The notes below the pieces were generated by a model. It was not told where the DNA came from and did no database searches. It saw only the letters and a list, made by a program, of their open reading frames with translations. A DNA stretch of 64,000 nt from Sporosalibacterium faouarense (lineage in GTDB: Bacteria; Bacillota; Clostridia; Tissierellales; VENL01), in assembly GCF_016765695.1 (NCBI RefSeq), contig NZ_JAETGO010000034.1, positions 124,001-188,000 of the forward strand. Reading direction: 5' to 3'. This document shows, piece by piece, positions 4,533-33,788 of the stretch. Every line of letters starts with the position of its first letter. The stretch's first letter is position 1. Position numbers and translations under genes: made by a program.

Positions 4533-4690
4533 ATTATTCACTCTAATATATAGGGTTATTGAAAAATATGTACTATTAGAGGTACCGCCAACATCGTCGG
4601 ATTATCTTGACTATATAGTGAAAAAACTAGTATTTTCAACATATTCACGTTGTTTATATATACACAAAGAAAACTAAGACTTTTACGCAC

Positions 4691-4815
4691 CGTTTGCCAT
4701 TGACATGGAGCCTCTGCAGGTATGATTTTAAGCCCTAAATGGATAGTGAAATGGAAAAGGGCTATACCACTTAAAGTAGGCTATCATACCTACTTCTCCG
4801 TGTAAATGGTTCGCT
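4691..4815. repeat. Large imperfect inverted repeat (possible structured RNA or oriT-like site)
   Basis: A left arm near 4691-4727 (GTTTGCCATTGACATGGAG, then AGGTATGAT) pairs imperfectly with a right arm near 4780-4815 (ATCATACCT, then CTCCGTGTAAATGGTTCGC). An inner hairpin AGCCCT/AGGGCT lies within. It follows the conjugation genes and contains no believable ORF. An ICE end, oriT or non-coding RNA are all possible. Confidence 0.45.
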
Positions 4816-5193
4816 TCGCCAAACTACTTTTTACTAGGTACGTAGTCTACTTTGTGTACTATGCTTACAATAGTTTTAGGTAGTGCTAATGCTAAACTGA
4901 ACTTTTCTATTGACAAAAGCAGGTAGTCTAGTTAATCCGATAAAACTCACGCTAAGACAATATATGGAAGTATTATTTATTAACATGATAATACTAGAAA
5001 TTTTGATGTCTTGAAAAAATAGATTCTTAGTAAAATTGTATAGTGTTATAATAAACTATTTATCAAATCTAATATAACCTTGATTCAAATATTTAAAATC
5101 AAATAAAAAAACTTGTGTTAATATAATAAATATATATACCACAAGCTTCTTTGTGAATTAGAGTATTTTAGAACAATTTACAAATTCGATTTT
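4816..5193. other. AT-rich gene-free stretch
   Basis: About 380 bp between the inverted repeat and merB. I see no supported gene, tRNA or clear terminator. Confidence 0.5.
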
Positions 5194-5823
5194 TTACAGA
5201 GTTATATCTTTCCACCAGCTTTTACCTAAAATAGCAGCTTCTTTTAAATACAAAAGTTTTCCTTCTATAGTCAAGTTATGTTTACGCCATAGATCAAAAT
5301 GCTCACCTGAGCAAAAAAAGTTTATCTGTGGTCAGGTGCAACCTACTATGGATTTACCTAAATCGGCATCGACTATCCATAACTTTATATCTGATTCTGA
5401 CTCATACGTAAATTCACCTTTTGCTAATTCTACAGCTAACGAAGTTTCACAGGAATAACAATATGAGTTTATTTTTGCATCTACTTGTAAAGCAGCAGGA
5501 ATTCCAATGACATCAGCAGCACACCAGGTAAAGAGCTTTTGTTCTCCAATGTGTAAGCTGTGAGGTGTTTCAACTAATGAAAGCCCAAAGCTTCCAACTA
5601 CAGCATCTAAACGATGGTCAATAACAACTATTCCATTTTGTTTTAATCTTTCAAGAATGGTTTTTATAATTTACTTTGGCATATTTGTTTCCTGATGCAG
5701 ATAATTTAGAGTTGCAGGTATTCCTTTTAAAATAGAGAAAAATGCTGCATTCCTTATATTTTTTTCTTCGGGTGAAAATTGTTCAAAATAATCACCCAAT
5801 TGCTCCTCAATACCTTCAATCAT
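5194..5823 (-). pseudogene. merB: Organomercurial lyase MerB with TGA at the catalytic Cys159 position and one TAA
   Basis: MerB cleaves the C-Hg bond of organomercurials and passes Hg(II) to MerA. Read through two stops, the frame gives 209 residues, normal for MerB. Cys101-Ala-Ala-Asp104 matches catalytic Cys96/Asp99 and Cys122 matches Cys117. The TGA is codon 164, in T-stop-PQINFFCS, where MerB has catalytic Cys159. The spacings 101 to 122 and 101 to 164 (21 and 63) equal those of 96 to 117 and 96 to 159. A hairpin with an AGGT loop lies 18 nt after the TGA. This suggests selenocysteine. Codon 51 is TAA, one change from CAA in a helix-turn-helix-like region, and is unexplained: a real nonsense mutation or a base error. 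It is the last gene of the operon, 48 bp after the metallochaperone. Confidence 0.7.
5300..5313 (-). promoter_or_regulatory. SECIS-like hairpin in merB
   Basis: On the coding strand TGCTC-AGGT-GAGCA begins 18 nt after the TGA of merB. A short stem with GG in the apical loop, at this distance, fits the general bacterial SECIS description. It is unproven. Confidence 0.45.
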
Positions 5824-5871
5824 GTCTTACTAGTCCCCTTTATAATAATATATAAAAGAATATGGTAGATT

Positions 5872-6378
5872 CTAGTTCTTTTTATTTTTAAATTGAAGTC
5901 CTTTATCTATAGCACTTTGGACTACAGAATGACAGCATTTACCTGATGGATTCTTTATTTCACACTGTCCATTTTTCATGGCACCTGTTAATCTTACAAT
6001 GTCTTTCATATTTTCAGCATTGTCCTTTACTACGGCACTTATAACCTGTTCTTCTGTTACTTCATTACAATAGCATACATATTTAGGTTCTGCGTCTTTT
6101 TTAAACCATATAGGGACTTTTACGTCTCTTTTCTTAAATACACTATCTAAATCTGAATTATAATAAACTACGTCACATTCTTCATCCATACACAAGTAAT
6201 AATCTTCACTTTTAACATTTTCAACTAATTCATCACAAACCATGTGTTCTACAGTAGTATTTTTTACTTTATCTCCTGCTTTTTTACATATAGGACATGA
6301 ATCATTTTTTTCTACCATACTGGTAGATTCTAATTGGCTCCCTCAGCAGGATTTATTACTATTAACTTGGTTATTCAT
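5872..6378 (-). CDS. CopZ-like iron-sulfur metallochaperone, putative selenoprotein (Sec12)
   Basis: Read from ATG 6378 (ribosome site GAGGAGG) through one TGA, this gives 168 residues: a Cys-rich zinc-ribbon-like N-terminal part (CPIC at 28-31, CMDEEC further on) and a C-terminal BFD-like [2Fe-2S] part (YVCYC ... GKCC). This is the architecture of Archaeoglobus-type CopZ metallochaperones. The start reads NKSC-TGA-GSQLESTSMVEKN. The paralogue at 32961 reads SRSCCGGKTESASMVEKN, so the TGA stands exactly for its second Cys. Starting at Met21 would lose the vicinal pair and has no better ribosome site. A perfect 6-bp hairpin follows 15 nt after the TGA. It lies 29 bp after merA. Confidence 0.75.
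6311..6327 (-). promoter_or_regulatory. SECIS-like hairpin in copZ-like gene
   Basis: TCTACC-AGTAT-GGTAGA on the coding strand starts 15 nt after the TGA. The stem is perfect. The loop lacks GG, so it is a weaker match to the SECIS model than those in merB or the ATPase gene. Confidence 0.4.
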
Positions 6379-6407
6379 CACTTATTCCTCCTCTTTATTT
6401 CTTATAT

Positions 6408-7835
6408 TTATTCTGCACAACAGCTAAGCTTTGTCATATCCTTATAAAAGGATTGAGCTACAAGCTTTATAGCTTCAGACATTGTTGGGTATACGTGTAT
6501 TGTATTTGAAATGTCATCAATTGTAAGGTCATGTTGGATTGCTAAAGTGGTTTCATGTATTATGTCAGCTGCTAATTCTCCAATAGAATGAACTCCTAAA
6601 ATCTTTTTTGAATTCTTATCAATAATCATTTTTACAAATCCTTTAGTATCTCTTATTGCAGCAGCCTTTGGTACCATTTTCATATCTAGCTTTCTGCTTT
6701 CTATCTTGTAACCTTCTTTAACCGCATCATTTTCTCTTAGTCCTACTGATGCTACTTGTGGACTCGTAAATATGGCATGGGGAACAGCTTTGTAATTTGG
6801 TTTTTTAATATTACCTTGAATAGCATTTTCCCCAGCAACTGAGCCTTCGTGGGCATCTACTGTAACAAGCATATAATTACCGATAACATCACCAGCAGCA
6901 TAAATATCCGGGTTTGATGTCTGTAAAAATTCATTTACTTTTATGAAGCCTTTCTCGTCTACATTTATTCTAGCCTTTTCTAGTGCCATAGTATCGGAAT
7001 TTGGAATTCTACCTGTTGCTACTAACAATTCATCCCCTTCAAAAGTATGTTCATTTCCATCCTTTATAACAGTTACATACTTTTTATTATTTTCTTCATA
7101 AACAGATTTAAAAGATAATTCTTTTATTATCTCAATATTTTCATTTAACAATATTTTTTCAAGTGCTTCTGAGATTTCAGATTCTTCATTTTTAACTATC
7201 CTGCTGCTCCTTTGAAGCATAGTGACTTTGGAGCCAAATCTGGCAAACATCTGAGCAAATTCAACAGCTATCCAACCTCCACCTACAATAACTAAAGTTT
7301 CAGGTAGTTTTTCTAGCTCCATAATTTCAATATTAGTTAGGTAATTTACATCTGCTAATCCTGGAATCTGAGCAATTGATGCTCTTGAACCTATAGTAAT
7401 TATGTATTTTGTAGCTTTATATTGCTGCCTATTTATTTTAATAGTATCTTTGTTAATAAATTCTGCCTTCCCTTGAATCATAGTAATATTTCTGTCTTTT
7501 TCATAAATATCTATATATTTTGTTTTTCTTAACTCAGTTATTAAACTATTTTTTTGTTTGATTACTTCTTTGAAATCTAGTGGTTCCTGTTTTAAATTTA
7601 TGCCACCAAATGGATTGTACTTACCGTAATTATATAATTCTGCTGCTCTAAGCAAATTTTTGGTAGGTACACATCCTACGTTTAAACAAGTTCCTCCAAT
7701 AACACCTTTTTCAATTATGGCTACTTTTTTGTTTAATTGAGATGCTTTAATAGCTGCTGCAAAACCTGCTGAGCCACCGCCAATCACAATCAAATCAAAC
7801 TGCTTAACATTTTCTGTTGAACAACAGTTATTCAT
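6408..7835 (-). CDS. merA: Mercuric reductase MerA
   Basis: This cytosolic flavoprotein disulfide reductase turns Hg(II) into Hg(0) with NAD(P)H. The 475 residues start at ATG 7835, 7 bp after GAGGAGG, and overlap the arsR stop by 8 bp. FAD binding: VIGGGSAGF at 17-25. Redox pair: Cys50 and Cys55 in GGTCLNVGCVP. A second dinucleotide site reads VIVGGGWIAVEFAQ, and AAGDV is present. The C-terminus ends KLSCCAE: vicinal Cys472-Cys473 are the Hg-delivery pair that separates MerA from lipoamide dehydrogenases. It lacks the N-terminal HMA domain of many MerA proteins but has a vicinal pair at Cys4-Cys5. The copy at 31528 is closely similar. Confidence 0.92.
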   Translation of the reverse strand: MNNCCSTENVKQFDLIVIGGGSAGFAAAIKASQLNKKVAIIEKGVIGGTCLNVGCVPTKNLLRAAELYNYGKYNPFGGINLKQEPLDFKEVIKQKNSLITELRKTKYIDIYEKDRNITMIQGKAEFINKDTIKINRQQYKATKYIITIGSRASIAQIPGLADVNYLTNIEIMELEKLPETLVIVGGGWIAVEFAQMFARFGSKVTMLQRSSRIVKNEESEISEALEKILLNENIEIIKELSFKSVYEENNKKYVTVIKDGNEHTFEGDELLVATGRIPNSDTMALEKARINVDEKGFIKVNEFLQTSNPDIYAAGDVIGNYMLVTVDAHEGSVAGENAIQGNIKKPNYKAVPHAIFTSPQVASVGLRENDAVKEGYKIESRKLDMKMVPKAAAIRDTKGFVKMIIDKNSKKILGVHSIGELAADIIHETTLAIQHDLTIDDISNTIHVYPTMSEAIKLVAQSFYKDMTKLSCCAE

Positions 7836-8190
7836 TTTGAACCTCCTCATTTAGTTTACTTTTTTCATTATTAAGTATTTCACAGGTGCATATATTGCAA
7901 GTATTTCCTTCTGCTATATTTTGTCCGAGTTTAACTAGAGCTATTATTCTTTCATCAGCAATAGAGTAATATATATTTTTACCATCCTTAGTGGACTTCA
8001 CATAGTTACACCATTTTAAACATTTCAACTGCATAGATATAAGGCTTTGAGAATATCCAGTATCTTCTACTAATTCTCCTACATTTTTCTCACCATCAAT
8101 TAGTGAAAGAATAATTTTATATCTAGTTGGATTAGACAATCCATGAAAGAATTTGGTATATACTTCAATTTGCTCATCTGTAAATTGCAT
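7828..8190 (-). CDS. ArsR-family repressor of the mer operon
   Basis: A winged-helix metalloregulator of 120 residues from ATG 8190, 7 bp after AAGGAG; a start 18 bp upstream would bury that site. The core GLSNPTRYKIILSLIDG and recognition helix YSQSLISMQLKCLKWCNYV are ArsR-like. Cysteines at KCLKWC and near the end (CNICTC) could bind Hg. The paralogue at 31173 shares this pattern. It is encoded inside the operon, so it likely autoregulates through the palindrome at 9764-9803. Mercury as inducer is inferred from context; Gram-positive mer operons often use MerR, so an ArsR-type regulator is noteworthy. Confidence 0.8.
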   Translation of the reverse strand: MQFTDEQIEVYTKFFHGLSNPTRYKIILSLIDGEKNVGELVEDTGYSQSLISMQLKCLKWCNYVKSTKDGKNIYYSIADERIIALVKLGQNIAEGNTCNICTCEILNNEKSKLNEEVQNE

Positions 8191-8258
8191 ATATTTTCTC
8201 CTTCCCAAAAGCTATAAATATAATAAATGATAGATATTTTAATATTTAAGTTAATGAA

Positions 8259-9020
8259 TTATCGAGGGATTTTCTTTTTATTATAGAAATAAATTGCAAC
8301 ACAAATAGTAATTATTAACAAACTCATTAACTGAGCAATTCGAATTGGTCCAAGCATTAAGCTATCAGTTCGCATACCTTCTATAAAAAATCTCCCTATA
8401 GAATACAGTATTCCATAAAGTAGTAATATCTCTCCATCAAATTTCTTTTTGTCTTTATATATTATCAAAAATATAAAAGCTAAAAAGTTCCATATAGATT
8501 CATATAAAAAGGCAGGGTGATAATATTGTCCCTGTATATACATATTATTTTTAATAAATTCAGGGAAAATACTTATAAACTGTTCCGATACAGGACCACC
8601 ATGTGCTTCTTGATTAAAGAAATTTCCCCATCTACCTATAGCCTGACCAAGAATAAGACTAGGGGCAAATATATCTCCAAGTTTGAAGAACATTAATTTT
8701 TTCTTTTTCACATAGATAAACCCAGCGATTAGTCCTGCAATCACTCCACCATGGATTGCCAGACCACCTTCTCGTATATTTAATATTGAGATAATATTAT
8801 CTTTATAAGATTGCCATTCAAAAATGACGTAGTATAATCTAGCACCAACTATTGAACTTGGTATTACAAGTAAAATAATATTTAATATATCATCTTCAGA
8901 TATATTTTTCTTTCTAGCTTCTCTTAAAGCCAATATTGTTCCTATAACCATAGCAAAGGATATAATAATTCCATACCAAAGTATTTCTAATCCAAATATT
9001 TCAAATGCTACTCGATTCAT
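8259..9020 (-). CDS. lgt: Prolipoprotein diacylglyceryl transferase
   Basis: Lgt transfers diacylglycerol to the lipobox cysteine of prolipoproteins at the membrane. The 253 residues have about seven hydrophobic segments and the family signature GxxIGRWGNFFNQEAHGG around residues 125-143, with the later RFFIEGMRTD. The start follows GGAGGAATACT. It sits between the Sec lipoprotein gene and arsR. The lipoprotein's VGC lipobox is its obvious substrate. A dedicated copy in a mer operon suggests acylation of that lipoprotein; it could equally be a second general Lgt. Confidence 0.9.
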   Translation of the reverse strand: MNRVAFEIFGLEILWYGIIISFAMVIGTILALREARKKNISEDDILNIILLVIPSSIVGARLYYVIFEWQSYKDNIISILNIREGGLAIHGGVIAGLIAGFIYVKKKKLMFFKLGDIFAPSLILGQAIGRWGNFFNQEAHGGPVSEQFISIFPEFIKNNMYIQGQYYHPAFLYESIWNFLAFIFLIIYKDKKKFDGEILLLYGILYSIGRFFIEGMRTDSLMLGPIRIAQLMSLLIITICVAIYFYNKKKIPR

Positions 9021-9047
9021 AGTATTCCTCCTTGTTTATCTGCTACT

Positions 9048-9413
9048 TTATCTTTGTATTCCATACCCATATTCTGAAAGAGCTTGCTCCATTTTATCTA
9101 AATTCACTTTATCTGGGTCATAAGTAATAATTGTATCACCGTCTTGCTTTACGGAAACTTTCTTGATACCATCTAACCTAGATAGTGCTGCTTGAGCAGT
9201 TGTCGCACAACTAGCTCAACTAAATCCAGTAATTAAAAATCTTTTTTCTACATCGTTAGAATCAAGTGTGTTATCTTTAGTTATTCTTATTTCGTTATTA
9301 TTTGTTTCACTTAATATTGCTGTATTATTATTTCTAGAATTACATCCGACAAATAATAGTACAATCATTACCATTAAAATTACTAACAAACTAAAACGCC
9401 TAGACACCGACAC
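9048..9413 (-). CDS. Selenocysteine-containing MerP-like HMA lipoprotein (Sec66)
   Basis: Read through one TGA, this gives 121 residues. The signal peptide ends LLFVGC with lipobox Cys24, and a polar linker leads to an HMA domain. The metal motif is GFS-TGA-ASCA where the family has GMTCxxC, so the TGA (9216-9218, codon 66) replaces the first Cys and Cys69 is kept: UxxC. After the TGA the frame continues through a complete HMA domain (LDGIKKVSVKQDGDTIITYD) to TAA 9048. That is hard to explain for a random nonsense mutation. A CTATCT-AGGTT-AGATGG hairpin starts 30 nt downstream. It probably captures Hg(II) outside the membrane for MerT, encoded 34 bp upstream. I infer the function. Confidence 0.8.
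9169..9185 (-). promoter_or_regulatory. SECIS-like hairpin in HMA lipoprotein gene
   Basis: CTATCT-AGGTT-AGATGG on the coding strand, six pairs including one G-T, with GG in the loop about 38 nt after the TGA. This is at the far limit of usual bacterial SECIS spacing. A closer hairpin AGTTGT-GCG-ACAACT also exists. Confidence 0.4.
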
Positions 9414-9447
9414 TCCTCCTTATAGCTTAGATGCATATTATTATAAT

Positions 9448-9744
9448 TTAATTTGAAAAGAAAGATGAATATAGAATCAATCCTACTGATACAAGGGTTG
9501 AAATCCATATTAGTAACTTTGTATTTTTAGACACAATTTTGTTTTTACTCATAAAATAATGTGCTGACGCAAGCATTATCACAGTTAAAGCTATAAATAC
9601 ATTTCTATATGGAGAAATTGTTGATACCATAGCAAGTCCTAATCCACTCAGACCGAGGGATGTAAATAATGCTATACCAACTCAGCATATAGCTGCAAAA
9701 AATGATGTAACTGTTGAACCTACACCTAGTAATTTTTCTCTCAA
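9448..9744 (-). CDS. merT: MerT-like mercury transporter, putative selenoprotein (Cys20-Sec21)
   Basis: MerT imports Hg(II) through a vicinal Cys pair in its first membrane helix. Reading from TTG 9744 (GGAGG 8 bp upstream) through one TGA gives 98 residues with three hydrophobic segments. The first holds AAIC-TGA-VGI, matching the MerT motif ACCVGP, so codon 21 replaces the second Cys. The next loop, STISPYRNVFI, matches the MerT EPYRPIFI segment. A hairpin with a GGTCT loop follows. Without recoding only a Cys-free 60-residue remnant starting at Met 9630 would be made. It is the first gene after the operator. MerT proteins are usually about 116 residues, so this one is short. Confidence 0.78.
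9643..9660 (-). promoter_or_regulatory. SECIS-like hairpin in merT
   Basis: TCC-CTC-GGTCT-GAG-T-GGA on the coding strand starts 21 nt after the TGA. A bulged T interrupts the stem on the 3' side, and the loop GGTCT resembles the apical GGUC of the E. coli fdhF SECIS. Confidence 0.5.
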
Positions 9745-9763
9745 GTTATTTACCTCCAATCTC

Positions 9764-9828
9764 TAATATAAACATATAAACATTTTTTGATATGTTTATA
9801 TTATATATCTTTATAATATATATTTCAA
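9764..9828 (-). promoter_or_regulatory. Promoter and ArsR operator of the Sec mer operon
   Basis: On the minus strand TTGAAA (9828-9823) and TATAAT (9805-9800) are separated by 17 bp. Overlapping the -10 and running downstream is an inverted repeat with 14-bp arms (TAATATAAACATAT and complement, 9764-9803). The second mer operon has the same core (ATAAACATAT) in its operator, so both are probably bound by the two similar ArsR proteins. Confidence 0.7.
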
Positions 9829-9869
9829 TAGCCTTATATTGTATATATAATAGAAATAATTATAACTAT

Positions 9870-10659
9870 AAGATGTTAATAACTATAAGTCAGTTAATTT
9901 ATCAAGGACTAATTACTAATAAGGTAGTAAGAGAATTTAAGGAACTAGGCATTGAAGCAAGATTCGAGAAGGAAAATATTAATACCCTAGACAGCAAAGG
10001 AGAAGTTTTACTAAGTATCCTTTCCGGCCTGGCAGAGGATGAAAGTAGATCTATTTCAGAAAACTCCACTTGGGGAATAAGAAGAAGGTTTGAACATGGG
10101 GAAAGTAATAGTAAACCATAAAAAGTTTTTAGGATATGATAAGGATGAAGATGGTAACCTTGTTATAAATGAAGAGCAAGCAAAGATAGTAAGAAGAATA
10201 TATAGAGAATACTTAGAGGGTAAAGGCACAAATAGAATTGCTAAAGATTTAGAAAGAGATAAGGTTCCTAAATGGGATGGAACGTATAAATGGTATGAAA
10301 GCAGCATTAGAAAGATGCTTCAAAATGAAAAATATAAAGGTGATGCACTACTTCAAAAAACATATACGGTTGATTTTCTAACTAAGAAGAGGCTAGAAAA
10401 TGATGGGCAAGTTCCAAAATACTATGTTGAAGAAAGCCATCCAGCAATTATAGATAAAGATACATGGGAAGCGGTACAGCTTGAAATGGAAAGGCGTAGA
10501 GCTTACGCAAAAGAGCATGGAATGAAAAGGCTAGAATATGCAACAGTTAAGAATCCATTTGCAGGGAAAGTAATATGCGGAAACTGCAATAAAATATATG
10601 GAAGAAAGACTTGGAATTCAACTAGTAAAAGCCTTAAAAGAATTATATGGAAGGGTTAA
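9870..10659 (+). pseudogene. Large serine recombinase remnant
   Basis: Parts of a phage or ICE integrase-type serine recombinase. FEKENINTLDSKGEVLLSIL and the following AEDESRSISENSTWGIRRRF belong to the resolvase domain. After a frameshift near 10105, GKVIVNHKKFLGYDKDEDG and later KVICGNCNKIYGRK continue the recombinase and zinc-ribbon domains. The N-terminal catalytic serine region is missing. The C-terminus stops at a sharp junction near 10655 with a P-type ATPase remnant on the opposite strand. Non-functional; probably the scar of an integrated element. Confidence 0.75.
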
Positions 10660-11452
10660 TAATACCCATTCCAGCTAATATAACGGCAACAATATTTATA
10701 ACCATTGAAATGACTATGTTGATTTTAATTGTAGCAAATACTTTTTTAGATAAAATGAACAGCTCGGGAATTTTAGATATATCATCTGCCATTAATGCTA
10801 TATCAGAAGTTTCTAATGCAACATCAGATCCCAGAACCCCCATAGCTACACCAATATCAGCTCTAGCCAGAGCAGGGGCATCGTTTATACCATCTCCTAT
10901 CATACACACTGTTTTATTTTTACTGATGTAATATTCAACTACTCGAACCTTATCCTCAGGTAGTTGTTCAGCATATACTTCATTAATCCCAGCCTTAGAA
11001 GCAATAGCATTAGCAGTAATTTGATTATCACCAGTTAGTAAAGCAATATTTCCTATTCCAAGTTTTTTTAATTTTTTTATAGTTTGAGAAGCATTTCCTT
11101 AATTTGATCAGCTACATTTATTAAGCCAACAATTTTATCATTAACTGAAACTAGCATAACAGTTTTACCCGATTGTTCATATTTTTTAATTTCATCTAGG
11201 ATATTTTCAGAAACCTTAATGTTATTGTCTGCTACTAGCTTGAGGTTACCAACTAATACTTTTCTATCGTTAACTTTTGCTATAACTCTTTTACCTAGTT
11301 TGATGCTAAAATCTTTGGGGTCAACTAGTTCAATAGAACTTTCTTTTGCTTTTCTAACTATGGCTTTCCCAAGAGGGTGTTCGGAAAACTTTTCACTGGT
11401 GGCAGCAATTTTTAATATTTCTTCTGTAGTATAATAAGGTGCAAGGCTGATA
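10643..11452 (-). pseudogene. Truncated CadA/ZntA-like P-type ATPase
   Basis: Read on the minus strand, two frames joined by a frameshift near 11095 encode the nucleotide-binding half of a heavy-metal P-type ATPase: SEHPLGKAIV, then LLTGDNQITANA and IGDGINDAPALARADIGVAM. The phosphorylation site, CPC helix and metal-binding N-terminus are gone. The C-terminus ends at the serine recombinase junction. It differs in sequence from both intact Zn/Cd-type ATPases in the window (GVLGSDVALETSDIALM against GGLGSDAAIEAADVVIM), so it is not a simple duplicate. Confidence 0.8.
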
Positions 11453-11614
11453 TGGCTATATTCATGTTTTTTTTGTTTTTAAAATGATAGTTTAGCCAAT
11501 GACATGTATGACTACTAATTATTTATTGAACTATTAATAATCAGATTCATAAAAAGTTCTATAAATACTTTAAACACATATAGAATAGTATAAGACATAA
11601 CATGGAGGGATCTC

Positions 11615-12370
11615 ATGGTTGATTTTAAAACGAATATAGCTTTTTTAGGTTTTTTTGGTTTTTTTGTTGCATGGATTGGAATGATAAGCGGAATTTTTCT
11701 TTCTAATGTGGTTTATAAAACTAATAGAAGAATAAAGGGCACAATACTTGGATTCATTGGTGGCCTTATACTTGCACTAGTATGTTTCGATATGCTTCCA
11801 GAATCCTTTGAATATGGAAATGTATATATAGCATCCTTTGGAATTACGATGGGTTTATCTTTAGCTATTATCCTTGAAGGAACTTTTCAACATAACCATT
11901 TGGGAACTGCTAAAAGTAATAATGATAAATTTCTTAAGATTGCAATTTTTATTTCAATAGGTATAGCTATCCATAATATTCCAGGAGGAGTTGCCCTTGG
12001 TGCACTAGTATCTACTTCATTAAGAAAAGCGATGCACCTATCAATAATTATAATACTACATGGAATTTCAGAAGGGCTAAGTATAGGTTTTTATCTTAAA
12101 AATAGGAAATCACAATTTGTTGCGCCCCTATTATTTTCAATGTTTACTGCACTCCCCATGGGAATTGGAGCAATATTAGGGGGTTTTATAGGAAATATAT
12201 CTTCTTATACAATTTCTATTAGCTTATCTTTTGCAGGTGGTTTAATACTATATGTGGTATGTAGAGAGATTCTTCCAGAGGCTAGAGAAGTATGGGAAGG
12301 TAGATTATCAACAATTGGTAATGTGTTAGGGGTAATAGCTGGAATTCTTATAATTTCATTGATACACTAA
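11615..12370 (+). CDS. ZIP-family divalent metal transporter
   Basis: This 251-residue membrane protein has about eight hydrophobic segments. Helix IV carries IGIAIHNIPGGVALG and helix V carries IIILHGISEGLSIG. These His/Asn/Glu motifs form the metal site of ZIP (ZupT-like) transporters. A GGAGG site precedes ATG 11615. ZIP proteins take Zn, Fe or Mn into the cytosol, though some low-affinity members have broad specificity. It stands alone between pseudogenes and cell-wall genes. Substrate not determinable. Confidence 0.85.
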   Translation: MVDFKTNIAFLGFFGFFVAWIGMISGIFLSNVVYKTNRRIKGTILGFIGGLILALVCFDMLPESFEYGNVYIASFGITMGLSLAIILEGTFQHNHLGTAKSNNDKFLKIAIFISIGIAIHNIPGGVALGALVSTSLRKAMHLSIIIILHGISEGLSIGFYLKNRKSQFVAPLLFSMFTALPMGIGAILGGFIGNISSYTISISLSFAGGLILYVVCREILPEAREVWEGRLSTIGNVLGVIAGILIISLIH

Positions 12371-12514
12371 ATTCTTTATGATAGAATATTGTAGAAAAAG
12401 AATATATGAGCAATCATTTGAAGAACAATTTAAATGGATTTTATTTACATAACAATAGGCATGAATCTTTGCTATAATTATTAAAATTGATTTATTTTAC
12501 TAGGGGGAGAAATG

Positions 12515-13867
12515 ATGAGTGGAGGCGCATATGCTAATAAGTTTAAAAATAAATACTTATATCTTATTATAGGGGTGTTATTAACTATAGCTGCGATTAG
12601 TAGTTACATCTATTTTGCAAAAACAGCCTATGCCATTTCTATAGATAATAAAGTAATTGGTGTAGTTAGAAATCAAGAAGAAGTTGATAGCATTATTGAA
12701 GAGATAAAAGATGAAATGAAAAATAAATATAATAAAGAAATGAAATTAAGTCAGGAGTTAAATATTAAGAAAACTAGAGTTAAAAATGATGATTTGACAT
12801 CTACTAAAGATATTAAGTCTAATTTATATAATATATTGGATTTTAAGATAGATGCATACGCTATTAATGTTAATGGCAAGGATTTGGTCTATGTTGAGAG
12901 TGAAGTCGATGCAGAAAAGGTTTTACAACAATTAAAGGCTAAGTACTACAATGAAAGTGAACAGCTAAAAGAGATAGGATTTGCAGAAAAAGTTGAAATA
13001 ATATCAAGTGAAATAGACATTAATAAGTTGGTCTCATTTGAAGATGCCTTAGATTATATTCTGTTAGGTGGAGAAGAACTACAAAAGTATAAAGTTGAAT
13101 CAGGAGATACTGCTTGGGATATTGCAATTAAATATGATGTAGGTTTAGAGGATTTAGCACTCGCTAATCCTGAAATGAATTTAGACAAGCTTAAGATCGG
13201 ACAGGAGATTAGTCTAAATATACCTGAACCCTATATAAATGTAAAAACAATTGAAACACAAGAATACGAAGAAGAGATACCCTTTAAGTTATCTTACGAA
13301 GAGAATGGCAATATTTACATAGGAGAAAAGAAGATAAAAAGGAATGGAGAGGAAGGAAAGAAAAAGGTAGATGTAGAACTAGTAAAGATAAATGGCATAT
13401 TAAAACAGAAAAATATTATCAGTGAAGAAATATTAAAAGAACCAACTGATGCTATTGTTTTAAAGGGAACTAAGGAAAGACCAAAGACTATGGCCTATGG
13501 AGCTTTTAATGTTCCTTCAAGGGGGAGACTTTCATCTAGATTCGGACGAAGATGGGGAAAAGACCATGAAGGAATTGATATTTCAGGATCAGTAGGAACA
13601 CCAATTAAAGCTGCTGATGGAGGCAAGGTTGTAACTGCTGGTTGGATTAATGGATATGGTAAAGCTGTTATAATAGACCATGAAAATGGTTATAAAACTC
13701 TATATGCCCATGCCAATTCATTAAAGGTTAAAAAAGGAGATAGGGTATATAGAGGACAAGTAATTGCAACAATAGGAACTTCAGGGAGAGTGACGGGTCC
13801 AAATCTTCATTTTGAAGTACAGAAGAATGGCGCACCTGTTGACCCTCTTAAATTTATAAAGTATTAA
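12515..13867 (+). CDS. M23 peptidase with LysM and G5 domains
   Basis: A 450-residue cell-wall endopeptidase. ATG 12515 is placed 5 bp after AGGGGGAG; ATG 12512 is possible. One membrane anchor lies near residues 14-33. A LysM domain (YKVESGDTAWDIAIKYDVG) is near 195, a G5-like domain near 250-320, and an M23 domain at about 345-448. M23 zinc ligands are visible in KDHEGIDISG, YAHANSL and NLHFEV. Such proteins crosslink-edit peptidoglycan, often in spore-formers. The order LysM-G5-M23 is normal for Clostridia. The next gene also binds cell wall. Confidence 0.88.
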   Translation: MSGGAYANKFKNKYLYLIIGVLLTIAAISSYIYFAKTAYAISIDNKVIGVVRNQEEVDSIIEEIKDEMKNKYNKEMKLSQELNIKKTRVKNDDLTSTKDIKSNLYNILDFKIDAYAINVNGKDLVYVESEVDAEKVLQQLKAKYYNESEQLKEIGFAEKVEIISSEIDINKLVSFEDALDYILLGGEELQKYKVESGDTAWDIAIKYDVGLEDLALANPEMNLDKLKIGQEISLNIPEPYINVKTIETQEYEEEIPFKLSYEENGNIYIGEKKIKRNGEEGKKKVDVELVKINGILKQKNIISEEILKEPTDAIVLKGTKERPKTMAYGAFNVPSRGRLSSRFGRRWGKDHEGIDISGSVGTPIKAADGGKVVTAGWINGYGKAVIIDHENGYKTLYAHANSLKVKKGDRVYRGQVIATIGTSGRVTGPNLHFEVQKNGAPVDPLKFIKY

Positions 13868-13929
13868 ATAATTACTGATAATTATATTAATTTTGAGATA
13901 CAAAGGAGTACTAAAGAGGGGGATTATAA

Positions 13930-15003
13930 ATGGGTAAGAAGTCTATTGCTTTATTTCTAAGTTTATCATTAGCTGCAATCCCCAGTGGATTGACATTTGC
14001 AGATGAAAGCCACAATTTACATAAAAAAGGTGTAGATTGCGAAGAAATAAAGATTGTTCAAAGTGCATTAAAACAGGATGGTACATATACTTATGATAAA
14101 TTAACTACGTATTTTGGTCCTATTACAGAAGAGGCCGTTATAGGTTTTCAAAGAAAATATGGACTTACAGCCGATGGTATAGTAGGTGCTTCTACAATAG
14201 ATAAAATGAAAGAGCTAGGCATATATCAAAAAGTAGGAAATACTAATCTTGTTATACAAAATAGCCAAGGAATGTACAAAAAAGGCATGAATCATGAAGA
14301 AATAAAAGTTTTACAGCAAGCCCTAAAACTAGATGGAGTTTATAACTATGATGAGCTTACTACATATTTTGGACCCGTAACAGAAAATGCAGTGATAGCT
14401 TTTCAAAGAAAGTATGGGCTTACTCCTGATGGAGTTATAGGGGCTTCTAGTTTGAATAAGATGAGCTCATTAGGTTTAATAAAATATTCATCTAATCAAG
14501 CGATAAGCAGAGGTTCAGTTACAAGAAAAGGTTTTGGGGAACATGTAGACTGGTGGAGTGAAGTTAAGGACAAGCTAATTAATAGAGGAGATAATGTAGT
14601 TGTTCAAGACTTTAATACTGGTAAACAGTTTAATATTAAAGTAACCTATGGAACAAATCATGCTGATGTGGAAGCCTTAACAGCTAATGATACTAATATT
14701 ATGAAAGACATTTGGGGAGGCTTCAGCTGGGAGAGAAGACCAGTACTAGTATATGTCGGAAACAGGGCTTTAGCTGCATCTATGACCAATATGCCCCATG
14801 CGGGAGTAGATAACCAACCAGAAGGAGCAACTTTGTCTAAGAGAAGTGGTGGTTATGGAAGAGGTTATAATCTTGATATGGTTAAAAATAATGGAATGAG
14901 TGGAGTGGTAGATTTACACTTTAAGGGTAGTTCAAGACATAAGGATGGTAGAAGTGATAGTCAGCATCAAAACGCAATCAAAAGGTCTGCTGGATTAAAA
15001 TAA
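13930..15003 (+). CDS. Secreted protein with two peptidoglycan-binding domains
   Basis: A 357-residue exported protein: signal peptide at residues 1-24, then two PG_binding_1 repeats (about 30-95 and 115-180) sharing TYFGP, AFQRKYGLT and DG. A C-terminal domain of ~150 residues (WWSEVKDKL ... DIWGGFSWERRPVLVY ... HFKGSSRHKDG) recurs in Clostridial wall proteins, but I cannot assign a reaction to it. It starts 62 bp after the M23 gene and ends in a terminator. Probably a wall-anchored hydrolase or accessory. Confidence 0.75.
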   Translation: MGKKSIALFLSLSLAAIPSGLTFADESHNLHKKGVDCEEIKIVQSALKQDGTYTYDKLTTYFGPITEEAVIGFQRKYGLTADGIVGASTIDKMKELGIYQKVGNTNLVIQNSQGMYKKGMNHEEIKVLQQALKLDGVYNYDELTTYFGPVTENAVIAFQRKYGLTPDGVIGASSLNKMSSLGLIKYSSNQAISRGSVTRKGFGEHVDWWSEVKDKLINRGDNVVVQDFNTGKQFNIKVTYGTNHADVEALTANDTNIMKDIWGGFSWERRPVLVYVGNRALAASMTNMPHAGVDNQPEGATLSKRSGGYGRGYNLDMVKNNGMSGVVDLHFKGSSRHKDGRSDSQHQNAIKRSAGLK

Positions 15004-15026
15004 AATAATATAATATTTTTTATAGA

Positions 15027-15064
15027 ACCTACTGATATTAATATTAGTAGGTTCTATATTTTTA
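15027..15064 (+). terminator. Rho-independent terminator
   Basis: Stem GAACCTACT ... AGTAGGTTC followed by a TATATTTTTATTTT tract, 25 bp after the peptidoglycan-binding gene. Confidence 0.75.
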
Positions 15065-15076
15065 TTTTAAAAAGAG

Positions 15077-15140
15077 TTGAAATTTAGTAAAAAAAGGTAT
15101 ATACTATAACAGAAACAAACACATGAGCAATTATTCACAT
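15077..15140 (+). promoter_or_regulatory. Promoter and CadC/SmtB-like operator
   Basis: TTGAAA (15077) and TATACT (15100) are 17 bp apart. Downstream, ACATGAGCAATTATTCACAT (15121-15140) matches the 12-2-12 type operator of SmtB/CzrA/CadC repressors. It is followed by AAGGAG and an arsR gene, so autoregulation is likely. Confidence 0.65.
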
Positions 15141-15157
15141 ATAAGGAGTTGAAGATA

Positions 15158-15526
15158 ATGCCTAATAATAAATCATCAGAAGAGTTTTGCAACTGTACCA
15201 TTATTCATGAGGATGTTGTAAGAAAGGTAAAATTAAATATGCCTCAGGAAGAAAGGCTATATGATTTAGCAGAGTTATTTAAGGTTTTTGGAGATACAAC
15301 AAGGATTAAAATACTGTATGCACTATTTGAAGAGGAGATGTGTGTATGTGATATAGCAGCTTTATTAGGTATGACACAATCAGCTATATCACATCAGTTA
15401 AGAGTGTTAAAGTCAGCAGGCCTTGTTAAGTACAGAAAAGAAGGGAAAGTAGCATACTACTCCCTAGATGATAATCACATAGAAAATATTTTTGACCAAG
15501 GATTCAATCATATAAATCACAAGTAA
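15158..15526 (+). CDS. ArsR/SmtB-family metal-responsive repressor (CadC-like)
   Basis: A 122-residue winged-helix repressor. ATG 15158 is 10 bp after AAGGAG. The N-terminus has CNC, as in CadC. The recognition helix reads MTQSAISHQLRVLKSAG and the preceding helix has CVCDIAALLG, giving the ELCVCDL-type metal site. The C-terminal helix DDNHIENIFDQGFNHINH has the Asp-x-His ... His-x-x-His spacing of the alpha-5 Zn site. It is the first gene of the operon with a second ArsR protein and the Sec P-type ATPase. Zn/Cd/Pb sensing is inferred. Confidence 0.88.
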   Translation: MPNNKSSEEFCNCTIIHEDVVRKVKLNMPQEERLYDLAELFKVFGDTTRIKILYALFEEEMCVCDIAALLGMTQSAISHQLRVLKSAGLVKYRKEGKVAYYSLDDNHIENIFDQGFNHINHK

Positions 15527-15558
15527 TAGTCAATAATTTTATAGAGAGGGTGATACAA

Positions 15559-15936
15559 ATGCAAAGGAATAACTCTAACCAAGAGTTTAAATGTAAATAT
15601 TTCAAAGTTCAGGAAGATATAGTTGAGAAAGTTCAAGACCATTTACCTAGTGAGGATGAATTCAAAGAACTAATAAACCTATTTCAGGCTTTTGCTGATA
15701 AAACTAAACTTAGAATAATTTATATTTTATTTGACTCTAAAGTATGCACTTGTGAGTTGGCTCAACTATTAAAGAAAGATGAGGACAAAGTTATTAGCCA
15801 TCTTAAAGAATTAGAAGAATTAGGCGTAGTTAAACATAAACAAGAAGAAGATATGACTTGTTACTACCTAGCTAACAATCATATTCAACACATTTTAGTT
15901 GAAGGATGTATCCATAAAAGCTACATTGATTCATAA
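15559..15936 (+). CDS. Second ArsR-like regulator, divergent
   Basis: A 125-residue paralogue of the preceding protein. It keeps KVCTCELAQLL and a C-terminal ANNHIQHILVEGCIH, but its recognition helix (KKDEDKVISHLKELEELG) has lost the usual SxxSxHL residues. It may dimerise or bind metal without normal DNA specificity. It lies 32 bp after the first arsR and 27 bp before the ATPase. Its C-terminal half is strikingly like the truncated ArsR at 20563, so the two metal operons share ancestry. Confidence 0.72.
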   Translation: MQRNNSNQEFKCKYFKVQEDIVEKVQDHLPSEDEFKELINLFQAFADKTKLRIIYILFDSKVCTCELAQLLKKDEDKVISHLKELEELGVVKHKQEEDMTCYYLANNHIQHILVEGCIHKSYIDS

Positions 15937-15963
15937 AGAGAAAGTTAAGAAAGGGGAAAAATT

Positions 15964-18339
15964 ATGAGTAAAAAAATTCATAAACAGCTAATTCTAGAAG
16001 GTCTAACTTGAGCGAACTGTGCTTCTAGGATAGAAGCAGACATAAATAAGTTAGAGAGTGTAAAATCAGCTTCTTTTAACTTTGTTACAGAGACATTTTC
16101 TATAGAAGTTGATGATGAAGATAAGATAGATTCTATAGTAGCCACAACGAGAGACATTGTTAATAAATATGAACCCCATGTAGTAGTAAAGGAGAAAATA
16201 ATAGATAAGGAAGGTAAGAAAGTCTTAGTATTAATGGGTCTTTCCTGTGCCAGTTGCTCTACAAAAATAGAGGATAAAGTTAAAGGCTTAAAGGGAGTTA
16301 ATAATGCCTATGTTGATTTTGCTAACGGCAAGTTGGTTATTGAAGGAAATAAAAGAGAGCTAGATAGGATAACTAAAGAAGCCACGGAAATAATTAAAAA
16401 GATTGAGCCAGATGTAGATGTTGTAGTAGAAGATAATAATGACAGTAAAAATACTAGTAAATCTTCACAGGAAAACAGTCATGGAATAAGTGATAATAAA
16501 AAAGAATTAATAAGACTATTGGTTGGAGCAGGATTCTTTGGAGCTGCAATGATTTCAAATTTTTCATTTTGGACTGAATTTACATTGTTCTTTATAAGTT
16601 ATGTTCTAGTTGGTGGAGAAGTAGTACTTAAAGCCTTTAGGAATATACTAAGAGGTCAGGTCTTTGATGAAAACTTCCTTATGACAATAGCTACTGTAGG
16701 TGCATTTATTGTAGGAGAATTTGCCGAAGGTGTAGCAGTTATGCTCTTTTATCAAGCGGGAGAGTTCATGCAGGATCTGGCAGTCAATCGTTCTAGAAGA
16801 TCTATAGCTGAGCTTATGGATATAAGGCCAGACTACGCTAATCTTAAAGTGGGAGAAGATACAAAGAAAGTATCGCCAGAGGAAGTAGAAATAGGGGACT
16901 TAATCATAGTAAAACCAGGAGAAAAGGTGCCACTAGATGGAGAAGTGGTTGAAGGAAGTTCTATGCTAGATACCTCAGCATTAACGGGAGAATCAGTTCC
17001 AAGGGAAGTAGAAGCAGGTAATGAGGTCTTAGGTGGATTTATAAATAAAAATGGATTATTGACGGTAAAGGTTTCTAAGGAATTTGGGGAATCAACTGTA
17101 GCTAAAATACTTGATTTGGTACAAAATGCAAGCAGTAAAAAAGCACCTACAGAAAACTTCATTACAAAGTTTGCCAGATACTATACACCAGTTGTTGTGT
17201 TTGGAGCTTTAGCATTAGCGATAGTTCCTCCTTTGGTAATAGAGGGAGCAACCTTCTCTGAGTGGATATATAGAGCATTGGTATTCTTAGTAATATCTTG
17301 CCCCTGCGCCCTTGTTGTATCTATTCCTCTTGGATTCTTTGGAGGAATTGGAGGAGCATCTAAAAACGGTATTTTAGTTAAGGGTGGAAACTATCTTGAA
17401 GCTCTTAATAGTGTTGAGACAGTAGTTATGGACAAAACAGGAACTTTAACAAAAGGCGTATTCAAAGTAACTAAAATAAGTACTATAAATGATTTTTCAA
17501 TGGATAAATTAATTAAATATGCAGCATATACTGAAAGCTATTCTAACCACCCAATAGCTACTTCAATATTAAAAGCATATGGAGATGAGATAGATAAAAA
17601 GGAAATTTCAAATTACAACGAAATCTCAGGTCATGGAATTAAAGCTACCGTTAAAGGGAAAGAAGTACTAGCTGGTAATGTTAAGCTAATGAAAAAAGAA
17701 AATATTAAATATAATGAAGTAGATGAAGCGGGAACTGTTGTTCATATAGCTATAGATAGACAGTATGTTGGTTATATATTAATTTCCGATGAGATTAAAG
17801 AAGATTCAAAGAATGCAATAATAGGACTTAAAGAAGTAGGAGTAAAACAGATTGTTATGCTTACTGGAGATAATAGTAGAGTAGCTAACAAGGTAGCACA
17901 AGAGCTAGGATTAGATAAAGTATATGCAGAGCTTTTACCCCAGCATAAAGTGGAAAAGGTTGAAATGCTTGAAAGGGAGAAAACAAAAAAATGTAAGCTT
18001 ATATTTGTGGGGGATGGAATAAATGATGCACCTGTACTAGCTAGGGCAGATATTGGAGTTGCAATGGGAGGACTCGGCTCAGATGCAGCAATTGAAGCAG
18101 CGGATGTAGTTATAATGACTGATGAGCCATCAAAAATTGTAAGTGCAATCAAGATAGCTAAGAGAACTAGAAAAATAGTGTGGCAGAATATTATATTCTC
18201 ACTGGGAGTTAAGGGGATATTTCTTATATTAGGAGCTCTTGGTTATGCAACAATGTGGGAGGCAGTATTTGCTGATGTTGGAGTAACAATAATAGCTGTT
18301 CTTAATGCAATGAGGGTTATGAATGTGAAAAAACTATAA
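15964..18339 (+). CDS. Zn/Cd/Pb-type P1B ATPase with selenocysteine in HMA domain 1 (Sec16)
   Basis: A metal-exporting ATPase. The full frame from ATG 15964 (AAGGGG upstream) gives 791 residues if TGA 16009-16011 is read as Sec. Starting at the next ATG (16234) would cut off a complete first HMA domain. HMA1: GLT-TGA-ANCASRIE, i.e. U16-x-x-C19. HMA2: GLSCASC at 93-98. Then TGES, CPC (446-448), DKTGT (490) and GDGINDAP. The paralogue at 20846 has Cys16 and Cys19 at identical positions (GLDCANC). The stem TGCTTCT-AGGAT-AGAAGCA starts 8 nt after the TGA. CPC and ISCPCALVV place it with ZntA/CadA (P1B-2). Selective Sec use at one metal-capture site is the notable feature. Confidence 0.85.
16020..16038 (+). 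promoter_or_regulatory. SECIS-like hairpin in P-type ATPase gene
   Basis: A perfect 7-bp stem TGCTTCT/AGAAGCA with loop AGGAT starts 8 nt after the TGA, putting GG at nt 17-18. This is a good fit to the general bacterial SECIS model. Confidence 0.55.
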
Positions 18340-18346
18340 AAATATC

Positions 18347-18388
18347 ATAATAAAGCTGTTGATACAGTAACCAACAGCTTTATTATTG
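18347..18388 (+). terminator. Terminator after Sec ATPase
   Basis: AATAAAGCTGTTG pairs with CAACAGCTTTATT around a 10-nt loop. The flanks are A/T-rich; the 3' U-tract is weak. Confidence 0.6.
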
Positions 18389-18420
18389 AAATCAATATAA
18401 AGTAAAGGAGATAAGAAAGC

Positions 18421-18657
18421 ATGTGCTATTATGGTTTAGGATTTGGTTCTAGTAGCTGGTTGTGGGGAGTTATGGGACTTATAAAAATACTAGTTGTTGT
18501 TGCAGTTATCATATGGTTAGTGAAATTAGCAACTAAAAATAATTATAAATTTAATAATTTTTCAAACAATGCTACACATATATTACATGAAAGATATGTT
18601 AATGGAGAGATTGACGAAGAAGAGTACCTTCATAAAAAGAAAATATTAAAAAGCTAA
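18421..18657 (+). CDS. Small SHOCT-domain membrane protein
   Basis: 78 residues: one membrane helix (about 22-42), then a C-terminal SHOCT motif, ILHERYVNGEIDEEEYLHKKKIL. SHOCT tails are short oligomerisation motifs on many small proteins. The gene follows the Sec ATPase and precedes lspA. A close analogue ends the copper cluster at 48481 (ILDERFAKGEIDEEEYNRKKNNL), so this type accompanies metal-export operons here. Exact role unknown. Confidence 0.75.
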   Translation: MCYYGLGFGSSSWLWGVMGLIKILVVVAVIIWLVKLATKNNYKFNNFSNNATHILHERYVNGEIDEEEYLHKKKILKS

Positions 18658-18784
18658 AGATATTATAGGAGATTTTATTAACATATGTTTATACATTTTT
18701 AAGATAAAATGAAAAATACTTAAAATCAATCCTGTACGAAATATGAGTAAACACAAAAAAATAACATAAACTTGAGGTGAATAA

Positions 18785-30979: not shown

Positions 30980-31040
30980 TTGTACTCATGTTCATATTAT
31001 GGTAGAATAAACATATCAACATATATTGATATGTTTATTC
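30980..31040 (+). promoter_or_regulatory. Promoter and ArsR operator of second mer operon
   Basis: TTGTAC (30980) and TAGAAT (31003) are 17 bp apart. A perfect inverted repeat with 15-bp arms GAATAAACATATCAA (31005-31019 and 31026-31040) overlaps and follows the -10. Its core matches the operator of the Sec mer operon. Confidence 0.72.
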
Positions 31041-31526: not shown

Positions 31527-31527
31527 A

Positions 31528-33781: not shown

Positions 33782-33788
33782 AGGTTAA

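What the first reader, a model, noticed from the sequence alone, without database searches (positions are those of the whole stretch)
5194..18339. A selenocysteine-based mercury and soft-metal handling system
Five metal-resistance genes (merB, copZ-like, HMA lipoprotein, merT, P-type ATPase) each carry an in-frame TGA exactly at a metal-binding or catalytic cysteine. In every case the protein continues in frame with full family similarity after the TGA, and a hairpin follows. Random decay would not hit a functional Cys codon five times with the same stop codon. Selenolates bind Hg(II) more tightly than thiolates, which gives a chemical reason. I recall Sec forms of MerT/MerP-like proteins from selenoprotein surveys, but a whole operon including MerB and a Zn/Cd ATPase seems new to me.
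Basis: partly seen in the sequence, partly recalled or inferred. Interest (0 to 1): 0.96.

Follow-up and report, generated by a model that had tools for sequence, protein, structure and literature searches.

The report
Selenocysteine-rich mercury resistance operon
A bacterial gene cluster of the mercury- and metal-resistance type carries the codon UGA, normally a stop, at positions of conserved cysteines in five genes, where it is predicted to be read as selenocysteine (four genes look usable, while the fifth, the mercury-carbon lyase, is likely dead here); this would turn a classic sulfur-based detoxification pathway into a partly selenium-based one.

Summary
Five genes carry an in-frame TGA at a conserved cysteine position: MerT, a MerP-like HMA lipoprotein, a CopZ-type [2Fe-2S] protein, a Zn/Cd-type P-type ATPase and MerB (at catalytic Cys159).

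Selenocysteine is strongly supported. The genome has tRNA-Sec, SelA, SelB and a SelD that itself carries a TGA. All five TGAs recur at the aligned cysteine position in other genomes. Homologs swap TGA for Cys codons, even within this window. SECIS-like hairpins follow 44 of 49 distinct TGA sites but 17 of 79 Cys sites. The ATPase hairpin is almost letter-identical in two other TGA-bearing ATPases. 34 of 35 TGA-bearing genomes tested have tRNA-Sec; the exception also lacks the hairpin.

The operon form recurs: genome G708 has MerT, MerP, MerB and CopZ-like genes in one stretch, each with a TGA. Sec forms of these families, and multi-Sec operons (SAO, TSO), are in print. I found none describing a mer operon of this kind, but two key papers could not be read. 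The Sec-MerB clade falls outside the curated SaoL model. Selenium incorporation, mercury dependence and any chemical benefit are untested.

The parts
9448..9744 (-). merT (98 aa, TTG start), TGA at 9682-9684 in the IC-U pair
   Evidence: best family MerT, NF033560 47.6 bits, below cut-off 130; exactly one TGA in 22 of 25 matching genomes, own included, of 249 searched
9642..9661 (-). SECIS-like hairpin of merT, loop GGTC
   Evidence: GGT of the loop is invariant in 21 sequences
9048..9413 (-). MerP-like HMA lipoprotein, TGA at 9216-9218 in GFS-U-ASC
   Evidence: PF00403 37.2 bits, cut-off 24.8; TGA at the same codon in L037, L127, L128/L122
9168..9186 (-). SECIS-like hairpin of the lipoprotein gene, loop AGGTT starting 37 nt after TGA (far edge of the range)
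   Evidence: same spacing in L037, L127, L122
8259..9020 (-). lgt, prolipoprotein diacylglyceryl transferase
   Evidence: PF01790 260.9 bits
7828..8208 (-). ArsR/SmtB-type regulator
   Evidence: PF01022 52.0 bits; NF033788 74.8 bits, cut-off 55
6408..7850 (-). merA, mercury(II) reductase, no internal stop, C-terminal CC
   Evidence: TIGR02053 559.3 bits, cut-off 454.45
5872..6378 (-). CopZ-type [2Fe-2S] protein, TGA at 6343-6345 in SC-U-G
   Evidence: NF045877 CopZ_Nterm_CU 250.9 bits, cut-off 190; TGA/Cys exchange
6311..6327 (-). SECIS-like hairpin of the CopZ-type gene
   Evidence: 13 cells changed on both sides, 0 of 500 shuffles as high
5194..5823 (-). merB, TGA at 5332-5334 (Cys159 position) plus in-frame TAA at 5671-5673; likely pseudogene here
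   Evidence: PF03243 82.4 bits, cut-off 27, for the part after the TAA
5300..5313 (-). SECIS-like hairpin of merB, loop AGGT
   Evidence: kept (loop AGTT) in L120 and L122
15964..18339 (+). Zn/Cd-type P-type ATPase, TGA at 16009-16011 in HMA domain 1 (GLT-U-ANC)
   Evidence: TIGR01512 550.6 bits, cut-off 313.5
16020..16038 (+). SECIS-like hairpin of the ATPase gene, loop GGA, -9.3 kcal/mol
   Evidence: almost identical in L160 and L159; a qualifying hairpin in 3 of 40 Cys sites
15149..15936 (+). two ArsR-like regulator genes ahead of the ATPase
   Evidence: ORFs; family by reading only
20846..23218 (+). paralogous ATPase with Cys (TGT) at the same codon
31495..33482 (+). second mer locus: MerA2 and a CopZ-type gene with TGT in place of TGA, hairpin retained
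   Evidence: the CopZ-type gene is 93.1% identical in nucleotides to the TGA form in Tissierella creatinophila (L038), MerA2 97.2%

Best explanation
A gene cluster of the mercury- and metal-resistance type, in a genome that encodes the selenocysteine machinery, carries UGA codons at conserved cysteine positions of MerT, a MerP-like lipoprotein, a CopZ-type [2Fe-2S] protein, a P-type ATPase and an interrupted MerB, and these UGAs are predicted to be decoded as selenocysteine, which would give the proteins softer, likely tighter-binding ligands for Hg(II) and similar metals. Inferred route: the lipoprotein (anchored after Lgt action) captures Hg(II) through its U-x-x-C pair, MerT passes it through the membrane by its C-U pair, MerA reduces it to Hg(0), the CopZ-type protein may deliver metal or electrons, and the ATPase exports remaining soft metals. 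SelB with tRNA-Sec would recode each UGA by means of the hairpin whose loop begins 17-37 nt downstream. In relatives an intact Sec-MerB would cleave Hg-C bonds with a Cys96/Sec159 pair; in this genome MerB is probably lost through the extra TAA. Shown: the TGAs, their conservation, the machinery genes, the predicted hairpins and the TGA/Cys exchange. Inferred: Sec incorporation, Hg as the substrate of the whole set, and any benefit of Se over S.
For: Machinery: tRNA-Sec, SelB, SelA and SelD all over cut-off. MerT: 22 of 25 matching genomes (249 searched, own included) carry exactly one TGA; own plus 19 of the other 21 were confirmed at the same codon, two were not recovered by the script. CopZ-type: 10 distinct TGA, 11 Cys and 1 Gly forms among the loci taken, five changes of state on the best tree, three forced by well-supported branches, covariation in 13 cells with 0 of 500 shuffles as high. 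MerB: TGA at the same codon in G734 and G708; three further database proteins, P0017-P0019, end exactly there, while all ten of P0007-P0016 read CTCPQINF. ATPase: TGA at the aligned HMA cysteine in 4 of 6 fetched regions, two with almost the window's hairpin. Operon recurrence: G708 has four TGA genes, L037 three, G734 two. 34 of 35 TGA-bearing genomes that I chose for the test have tRNA-Sec over cut-off.
Against: No protein or selenium data. MerB carries a TAA. Hairpins are weak individually against a synonymous-codon null, p 0.24-0.34 for MerB and MerT. MerT covariation is limited: one pair with changes on both sides, and fold_alignment finds no double-sided pair. The lipoprotein hairpin sits at the far edge of the allowed distance. 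12 of 25 Cys sites found with the lipoprotein query also have a qualifying hairpin, so the criterion is loose for HMA domains. One TGA-bearing CopZ genome, G197, lacks tRNA-Sec over cut-off and has no hairpin, so a TGA there may be decay. In the other Sec-MerT loci of the order (L013-L033, about 1.5 kb each side) no other mer query matched, so Sec-MerT need not mean mercury. The closest ATPase homologs, 76-77% identical, have Cys. Regulators are ArsR-type, not MerR.
Confidence: 0.88

Rival explanations
1. The TGAs are ordinary nonsense mutations in a decaying resistance island; truncated or dead proteins result.
For: MerB has a TAA as well; a Cu-type ATPase remnant and split recombinase lie alongside (the ATPase remnant by reading and by its match to the window's ATPase); TGT/TGC to TGA is one substitution; TGA ends other genes here, e.g. 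2969-3985.
Against: TGA stands at the aligned cysteine in other genomes for all five families, with hairpins and mostly with tRNA-Sec; decay would not keep the rest of the frame open. MerA, ArsR and Lgt are intact.
Confidence: 0.06
2. The proteins are genuine selenoproteins, but the system handles copper, zinc/cadmium or organometal compounds rather than mercury.
For: ATPase and ZIP transporter suggest Zn/Cd; no other mer query matched beside Sec-MerT in L013-L033; published SAO operons pair Sec proteins with organometal handling (passages).
Against: A true MerA (TIGR02053 over cut-off) sits inside the block between the Sec genes, as in L037.
Confidence: 0.2
3. UGA is a regulated stop: low selenium gives short products, high selenium full ones, and the selenium switch itself is the point.
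For: ATG at 16234, before HMA domain 2, could give a 701-aa ATPase without Sec.
Against: For MerT, the lipoprotein and the CopZ-type protein termination would leave no complete domain; no sequence evidence for a switch.
Confidence: 0.08
4. The TGAs or the MerB TAA are assembly errors.
For: Draft genome of 99 contigs; no reads available.
Against: Independent genomes carry the TGAs, among them single-contig genomes such as G734 and G220. The TAA alone has no such support.
Confidence: 0.02

Closest known systems
Classical Gram-positive mer operon (MerT, MerP, MerA, MerB)
   Same: MerA over cut-off, MerT/MerP/MerB family similarity, clustered genes
   Different: UGA at Hg-binding or catalytic Cys positions; ArsR-type regulator, lgt and a CopZ-type [2Fe-2S] gene inside the block
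SAO operon with SaoL (Sec-assisted organometal; Haft and Gwadz 2023, seen only as cited in PMC13188914)
   Same: Several selenoprotein genes in one operon, including a MerB relative with Sec
   Different: Two full-length Sec-MerB relatives score 59.8 and 65.5 bits on the SaoL model, cut-off 140, while L053 scores 167.3; motif CTU rather than CU; MerA and MerT/MerP rather than the Sao ABC transporter parts
TSO, three-selenoprotein operon (Haft and Tolstoy 2025, seen only as cited in PMC13188914)
   Same: Multi-Sec operon; NCBIfam knows an ArsR/SmtB-type regulator TsoR
   Different: TsoR model 54.7 bits against cut-off 115; among the matches shown no Tso model for the Sec proteins
Individually listed selenoprotein families: MerT, MerP, ZntA-type ATPase (UxxC), CopZ-type forms 1 and 2, MerB-like (PMC9312934 table; PMC2398784 passage)
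   Same: Same families, same kind of Sec position
   Different: Listed there as single families, not as one resistance cluster (as far as the table and passages show)

Membership tests
Bacterial selenoprotein genes (UGA recoded) | In-frame UGA with family similarity on both sides | tested here: met
   MerB additionally interrupted by TAA
Bacterial selenoprotein genes (UGA recoded) | Cys at the UGA position in homologs | tested here: met
   CopZ-type, ATPase and MerB Cys forms; for MerT only a degraded L034 match and the recalled CC motif
Bacterial selenoprotein genes (UGA recoded) | SECIS hairpin with G in the apical loop, loop about 16-37 nt after UGA (criteria recalled) | tested here: met
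   five of five sites; 44 of 49 TGA against 17 of 79 Cys sites; modest per-site p
Bacterial selenoprotein genes (UGA recoded) | tRNA-Sec, SelA, SelB, SelD in the genome | tested here: met
   of 14 control genomes 5, 1, 2 and 2 are over cut-off for tRNA-Sec, SelA, SelB and SelD
Bacterial selenoprotein genes (UGA recoded) | Selenium in the protein | not testable with these tools
   needs 75Se or mass spectrometry
mer operon | MerA, mercuric reductase | tested here: met
   TIGR02053 559.3 bits, cut-off 454.45
mer operon | MerT by curated cut-off | tested here: not met
   PF02411 27.9, cut-off 32.9; NF033560 47.6, cut-off 130; best family is still MerT
mer operon | Hg-responsive regulator | not tested
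   ArsR-type gene present; no MerR-type gene seen in the block 5194-9744 (ORF list)
Canonical MerB (NF009710/NF033555) | Curated score | tested here: not met
   70.4 and 64.3 for the fragment, 101-110 and 91-100 for three full-length relatives; cut-offs 193 and 200
MerB superfamily (PF03243) | Pfam gathering score and C96, D99, C117, C159 signature | tested here: inconclusive
   82.4 bits, cut-off 27; C96, D99, C117 positions kept, C159 position is UGA
SaoL (NF040728) | Curated score 140 | tested here: not met
   41.7 for the fragment; relatives 59.8 and 65.5
TSO regulator TsoR (NF045707) | Curated score 115 | tested here: not met
   54.7
CopZ_Nterm_CU (NF045877) | Curated score 190 | tested here: met
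   250.9

The most novel reading that the evidence does not exclude
There is a selenium counterpart of the mer operon: a recurrent set in which mercury import relay (lipoprotein, MerT), carbon-mercury lyase (MerB), a [2Fe-2S] partner and soft-metal export all replace a key cysteine by selenocysteine. Its Sec159-MerB forms a clade apart from SaoL that would cleave organomercurials by a thiolate/selenolate pair, and that mercury-resistance surveys miss because gene callers stop at UGA and screens demand Cys159.
Probability: 0.5. Interest if true: 0.82.

Novelty: new variant of a known kind. Interest (0 to 1): 0.66.

Why it matters
If true, selenium is used as a soft-metal ligand along a whole detoxification path, not only in redox enzymes. 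It offers a natural experiment: matched Sec and Cys forms of the same proteins, one pair within a single genome (CopZ-type, 6343-6345 against 33003-33005), let one test directly what Se adds to Hg(II) binding, transfer and Hg-C cleavage. It also means that surveys of merB, which matter for methylmercury budgets, may undercount: the survey in PMC8261052 screened for Cys159, and the string 'seleno' does not occur in its main text (passages and count). The database proteins P0017-P0019 do end at the UGA.

Tried and rejected
On the last: among the rows listed (a capped list) only the window's copy reached codon 16 with a TGA, but of six further TGA-bearing matches that I fetched 4 have TGA at the aligned HMA cysteine (in the other two, L162 and L163, the stops lie elsewhere). 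About four more TGA-bearing rows were not fetched.

Led nowhere: the Rfam scan of the window at gathering scores gives only a group II intron, and the permissive scan of 4500-19000 only a chance-level mir-31 match. Plasmid tblastn gave MerT and MerB relatives under 60% identity whose codons I did not examine. The lipoprotein search in the order is dominated by HMA domains of ATPases. fold_alignment on MerT found only a 4-pair stem without double-sided changes. My first CopZ structure string was out of register and was replaced. A first MerB alignment used a wrong frame and was redone. A pattern search for the SelD site printed many false hits; only the line with SSG*AAKIGP is the SelD site (my reading; hairpin -9.5 there).

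Literature: searches listed no paper that by title or abstract start describes a mer operon with several Sec genes; the two most relevant papers (PMC12013261, PMC9879109) are not held. Seen: PMC9312934 figures-and-tables section whole and passages; PMC13188914, PMC2398784, PMC8261052, PMC12195606, PMC10418091, PMC12013277 passages only; all other listed papers as listings.


Full report
What is there. On the - strand, 9744-5194, lie merT, a MerP-like HMA lipoprotein gene, lgt, an ArsR-type gene, merA, a CopZ-type [2Fe-2S] gene and merB. On the + strand at 15964-18339 lies a Zn/Cd-type ATPase behind two genes that read as ArsR-like (by reading). Five of these genes carry one in-frame TGA at a conserved Cys position. 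MerA, ArsR and Lgt carry no internal stop. MerB carries in addition a TAA at codon 51, with no indel next to it in an alignment with relatives; it is most likely a pseudogene here, though an assembly error cannot be excluded.

Can this genome make selenocysteine? Yes by gene content. tRNA-Sec scores 74.5 bits on C61; selD, selA and selB lie together on C85, all over cut-off, and SelD itself has a TGA. In the built-in 14 control genomes tRNA-Sec is over cut-off in 5, SelB in 2, SelA in 1 and SelD in 2, so the tests discriminate.

Is each TGA conserved? MerT: of 249 genomes of the order, own included, 25 match; 22 matches hold exactly one TGA and no other stop, two are partial without a stop, one has three TAA. 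Own and 19 of the other 21 were confirmed at the same codon, plus L037; L026 and L033 were not recovered by the script. CopZ-type: 69 of 249 genomes match. Among the loci taken I find 10 distinct TGA, 11 distinct Cys and one Gly form. Lipoprotein: TGA at the same codon in L037, L127 and L128. MerB: 4 of 391 genomes of the class match, the three besides own all with a TGA at the aligned codon; L053 is SaoL by curated score, L054 and L055 were not scored. Closer relatives exist: P0017-P0019 end exactly at the site, while all ten of P0007-P0016 have Cys there. A phylum search found matches in 6 of 398 genomes, and the DNA of G734 and G708 reads GCT-U-PQINFF with U = TGA. ATPase: the closest homologs, 76-77% identical, have Cys, but shorter ATPases of G221, G223, G101 and G017 have TGA at the aligned HMA cysteine, 4 of 6 regions fetched.

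Hairpins. By criteria that I recall for bacterial SECIS elements (loop 16-37 nt after UGA, G among the first two loop bases, at least four upper-stem pairs), all five sites have a hairpin of -6.2 to -9.3 kcal/mol. The background rate at -6.2 is 12% of 9048 codons. Across the five families 44 of 49 distinct TGA sites and 17 of 79 distinct Cys sites qualify. The Fisher test printed there, 7.5e-15, ignores relatedness, HMA sites can enter under two queries, and the MerB set mixes in SaoL-like sites, so I use it only as a description. Twelve of the 17 Cys exceptions are HMA sites found by the lipoprotein query, 12 of 25 there: for HMA domains the criterion is loose. For CopZ the stem is held by compensatory changes: 5 of 7 pairs and 13 cells change on both sides; 0 of 500 shuffles reach the cell count and 29 of 500 the pair count, and slid registers fall away (10 distinct rows). 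For MerT 7 cells at one pair do (2 of 500 shuffles as high; the number of such pairs, one, is no more than shuffles give). The ATPase string GTGCTTCTAGGATAGAAGC is identical in L160 and differs only at its last base in L159. Against a synonymous-codon null the single sites are modest, p = 0.34 (MerT), 0.028 (CopZ), 0.24 (MerB), 0.078 (lipoprotein), 0.032 (ATPase), so conservation carries the argument, not single folds.

Natural Sec/Cys exchange. The window holds a second mer locus. Its CopZ-type gene, 32961-33482, has TGT where locus A has TGA, keeps the hairpin (-7.8) and is 93.1% identical in nucleotides to the TGA-bearing gene of Tissierella creatinophila, while MerA2 is 97.2% identical. 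This looks like a recent change from Sec to Cys with a relic hairpin (direction inferred). The CopZ tree needs five changes of state, of which well-supported branches force three (27 Sec/Cys rows of 28; quick method, several long branches).

Link with the machinery. In 56 genomes chosen by me, tRNA-Sec is over cut-off in 48. I count 35 of them as holding a TGA form: own, G734, G708, the other 21 MerT genomes, and 11 with a TGA CopZ-type gene confirmed. Of these, 34 have tRNA-Sec over cut-off. G216 and G217, whose CopZ-type matches also hold a TGA, were not placed at the codon and are not counted. The exception, G197, also lacks the hairpin at its CopZ TGA: either decay or a gap in the draft. 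G106, G035 and G063, without a strong tRNA-Sec match, hold Cys forms (G035 has one borderline 47.3-bit match against a cut-off of 47).

Operon recurrence. G708 holds, in order, an ArsR-type gene, a ferredoxin-like gene, MerT-U, lipoprotein-U, MerB-U, an ABC-permease-like gene and a CopZ-like gene with its U near the C-terminus (GR-U-CAP), (ferredoxin and permease by reading). L037 (Clostridiaceae bacterium M1-B18) holds a Cys-MerB, MerT-U, lipoprotein-U, ArsR, MerA and CopZ-U. G734 holds ArsR, lipoprotein-U, a transposase-like gene, a Cys CopZ-type gene and MerB-U. In L038 and L039 merT is reduced to a remnant without the Sec region (my reading), and L040 matches likewise. So the set recurs, varies in content and is eroded in places.

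How it most likely works. Established for mer systems (recalled): MerP and MerT relay Hg(II) through cysteine pairs, MerA reduces it, MerB cleaves Hg-C bonds with Cys96, Asp99 and Cys159. Here one member of each pair in the lipoprotein, MerT and MerB is predicted to be Sec. Because selenolates are softer than thiolates, the relay would bind Hg(II) more tightly; this is inference. The reading that the substrate is another soft metal is kept at 0.2.

Known or new. Sec forms of MerT, MerP, ZntA-type ATPases, CopZ-type proteins and MerB-like proteins are listed singly (PMC9312934 table; PMC2398784 passage), and multi-Sec operons SAO and TSO are known (PMC13188914 passages). What I did not find in nine searches is a mer operon with several Sec genes, nor a Sec-MerB clade apart from SaoL. 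Since the two key papers were not readable, I call it a new variant of a known kind and not more.

Noticed in passing
window 9765-9800: An AT-rich dyad (AAACATATCA ... TTTATATGTTT) lies just ahead of merT; similar dyads stand ahead of the merT remnant in L038 and L039 and a weaker one ahead of merT in L037 (by eye). Possible ArsR-type operator.
   Followed up: partly
window 9792-11460: Serine recombinase pieces on the + strand (PF00239, PF07508) abut a P-type ATPase remnant on the - strand that has lost its N-terminal part and its frame.
   Followed up: no
window 31000-38500: Stretches of about 2.8 and 3.2 kb are 96.4 and 95.6% identical to Tissierella creatinophila DSM 6911 (L038), suggesting recent transfer of the second mer locus with its ABC transporter.
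   Followed up: partly
L068 (G107): The CopZ-type gene has GGA (Gly) in place of TGA, with the hairpin intact, although the genome has tRNA-Sec.
   Followed up: no
L015 and L027 (same family f19): Sec-MerT away from mer genes; in both loci read it lies between two genes on the opposite strand, which read as a release-factor-like protein and a sigma-54-type activator (by reading).
   Followed up: partly
L110, L112, L115: HMA sites of ATPase-like genes in the order also have TGA at the first HMA cysteine, with strong hairpins (-8.1 to -11.3).
   Followed up: no
L128 2042-5239: Beside the Sec mer genes of G708 lie genes that read as an ABC permease and a nitrogenase-component-like protein (by reading).
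   Followed up: no
L037 6477-7019: A second CopZ-like gene ahead of lgt may also hold a TGA (MEE-U-C) close to its start; its start codon is uncertain.
   Followed up: no
window 39831-43063 and 49187-52351: Two triplets of genes that read as tyrosine recombinases (by reading), besides transposase-like genes and a group II intron piece at 54827-54911.
   Followed up: no
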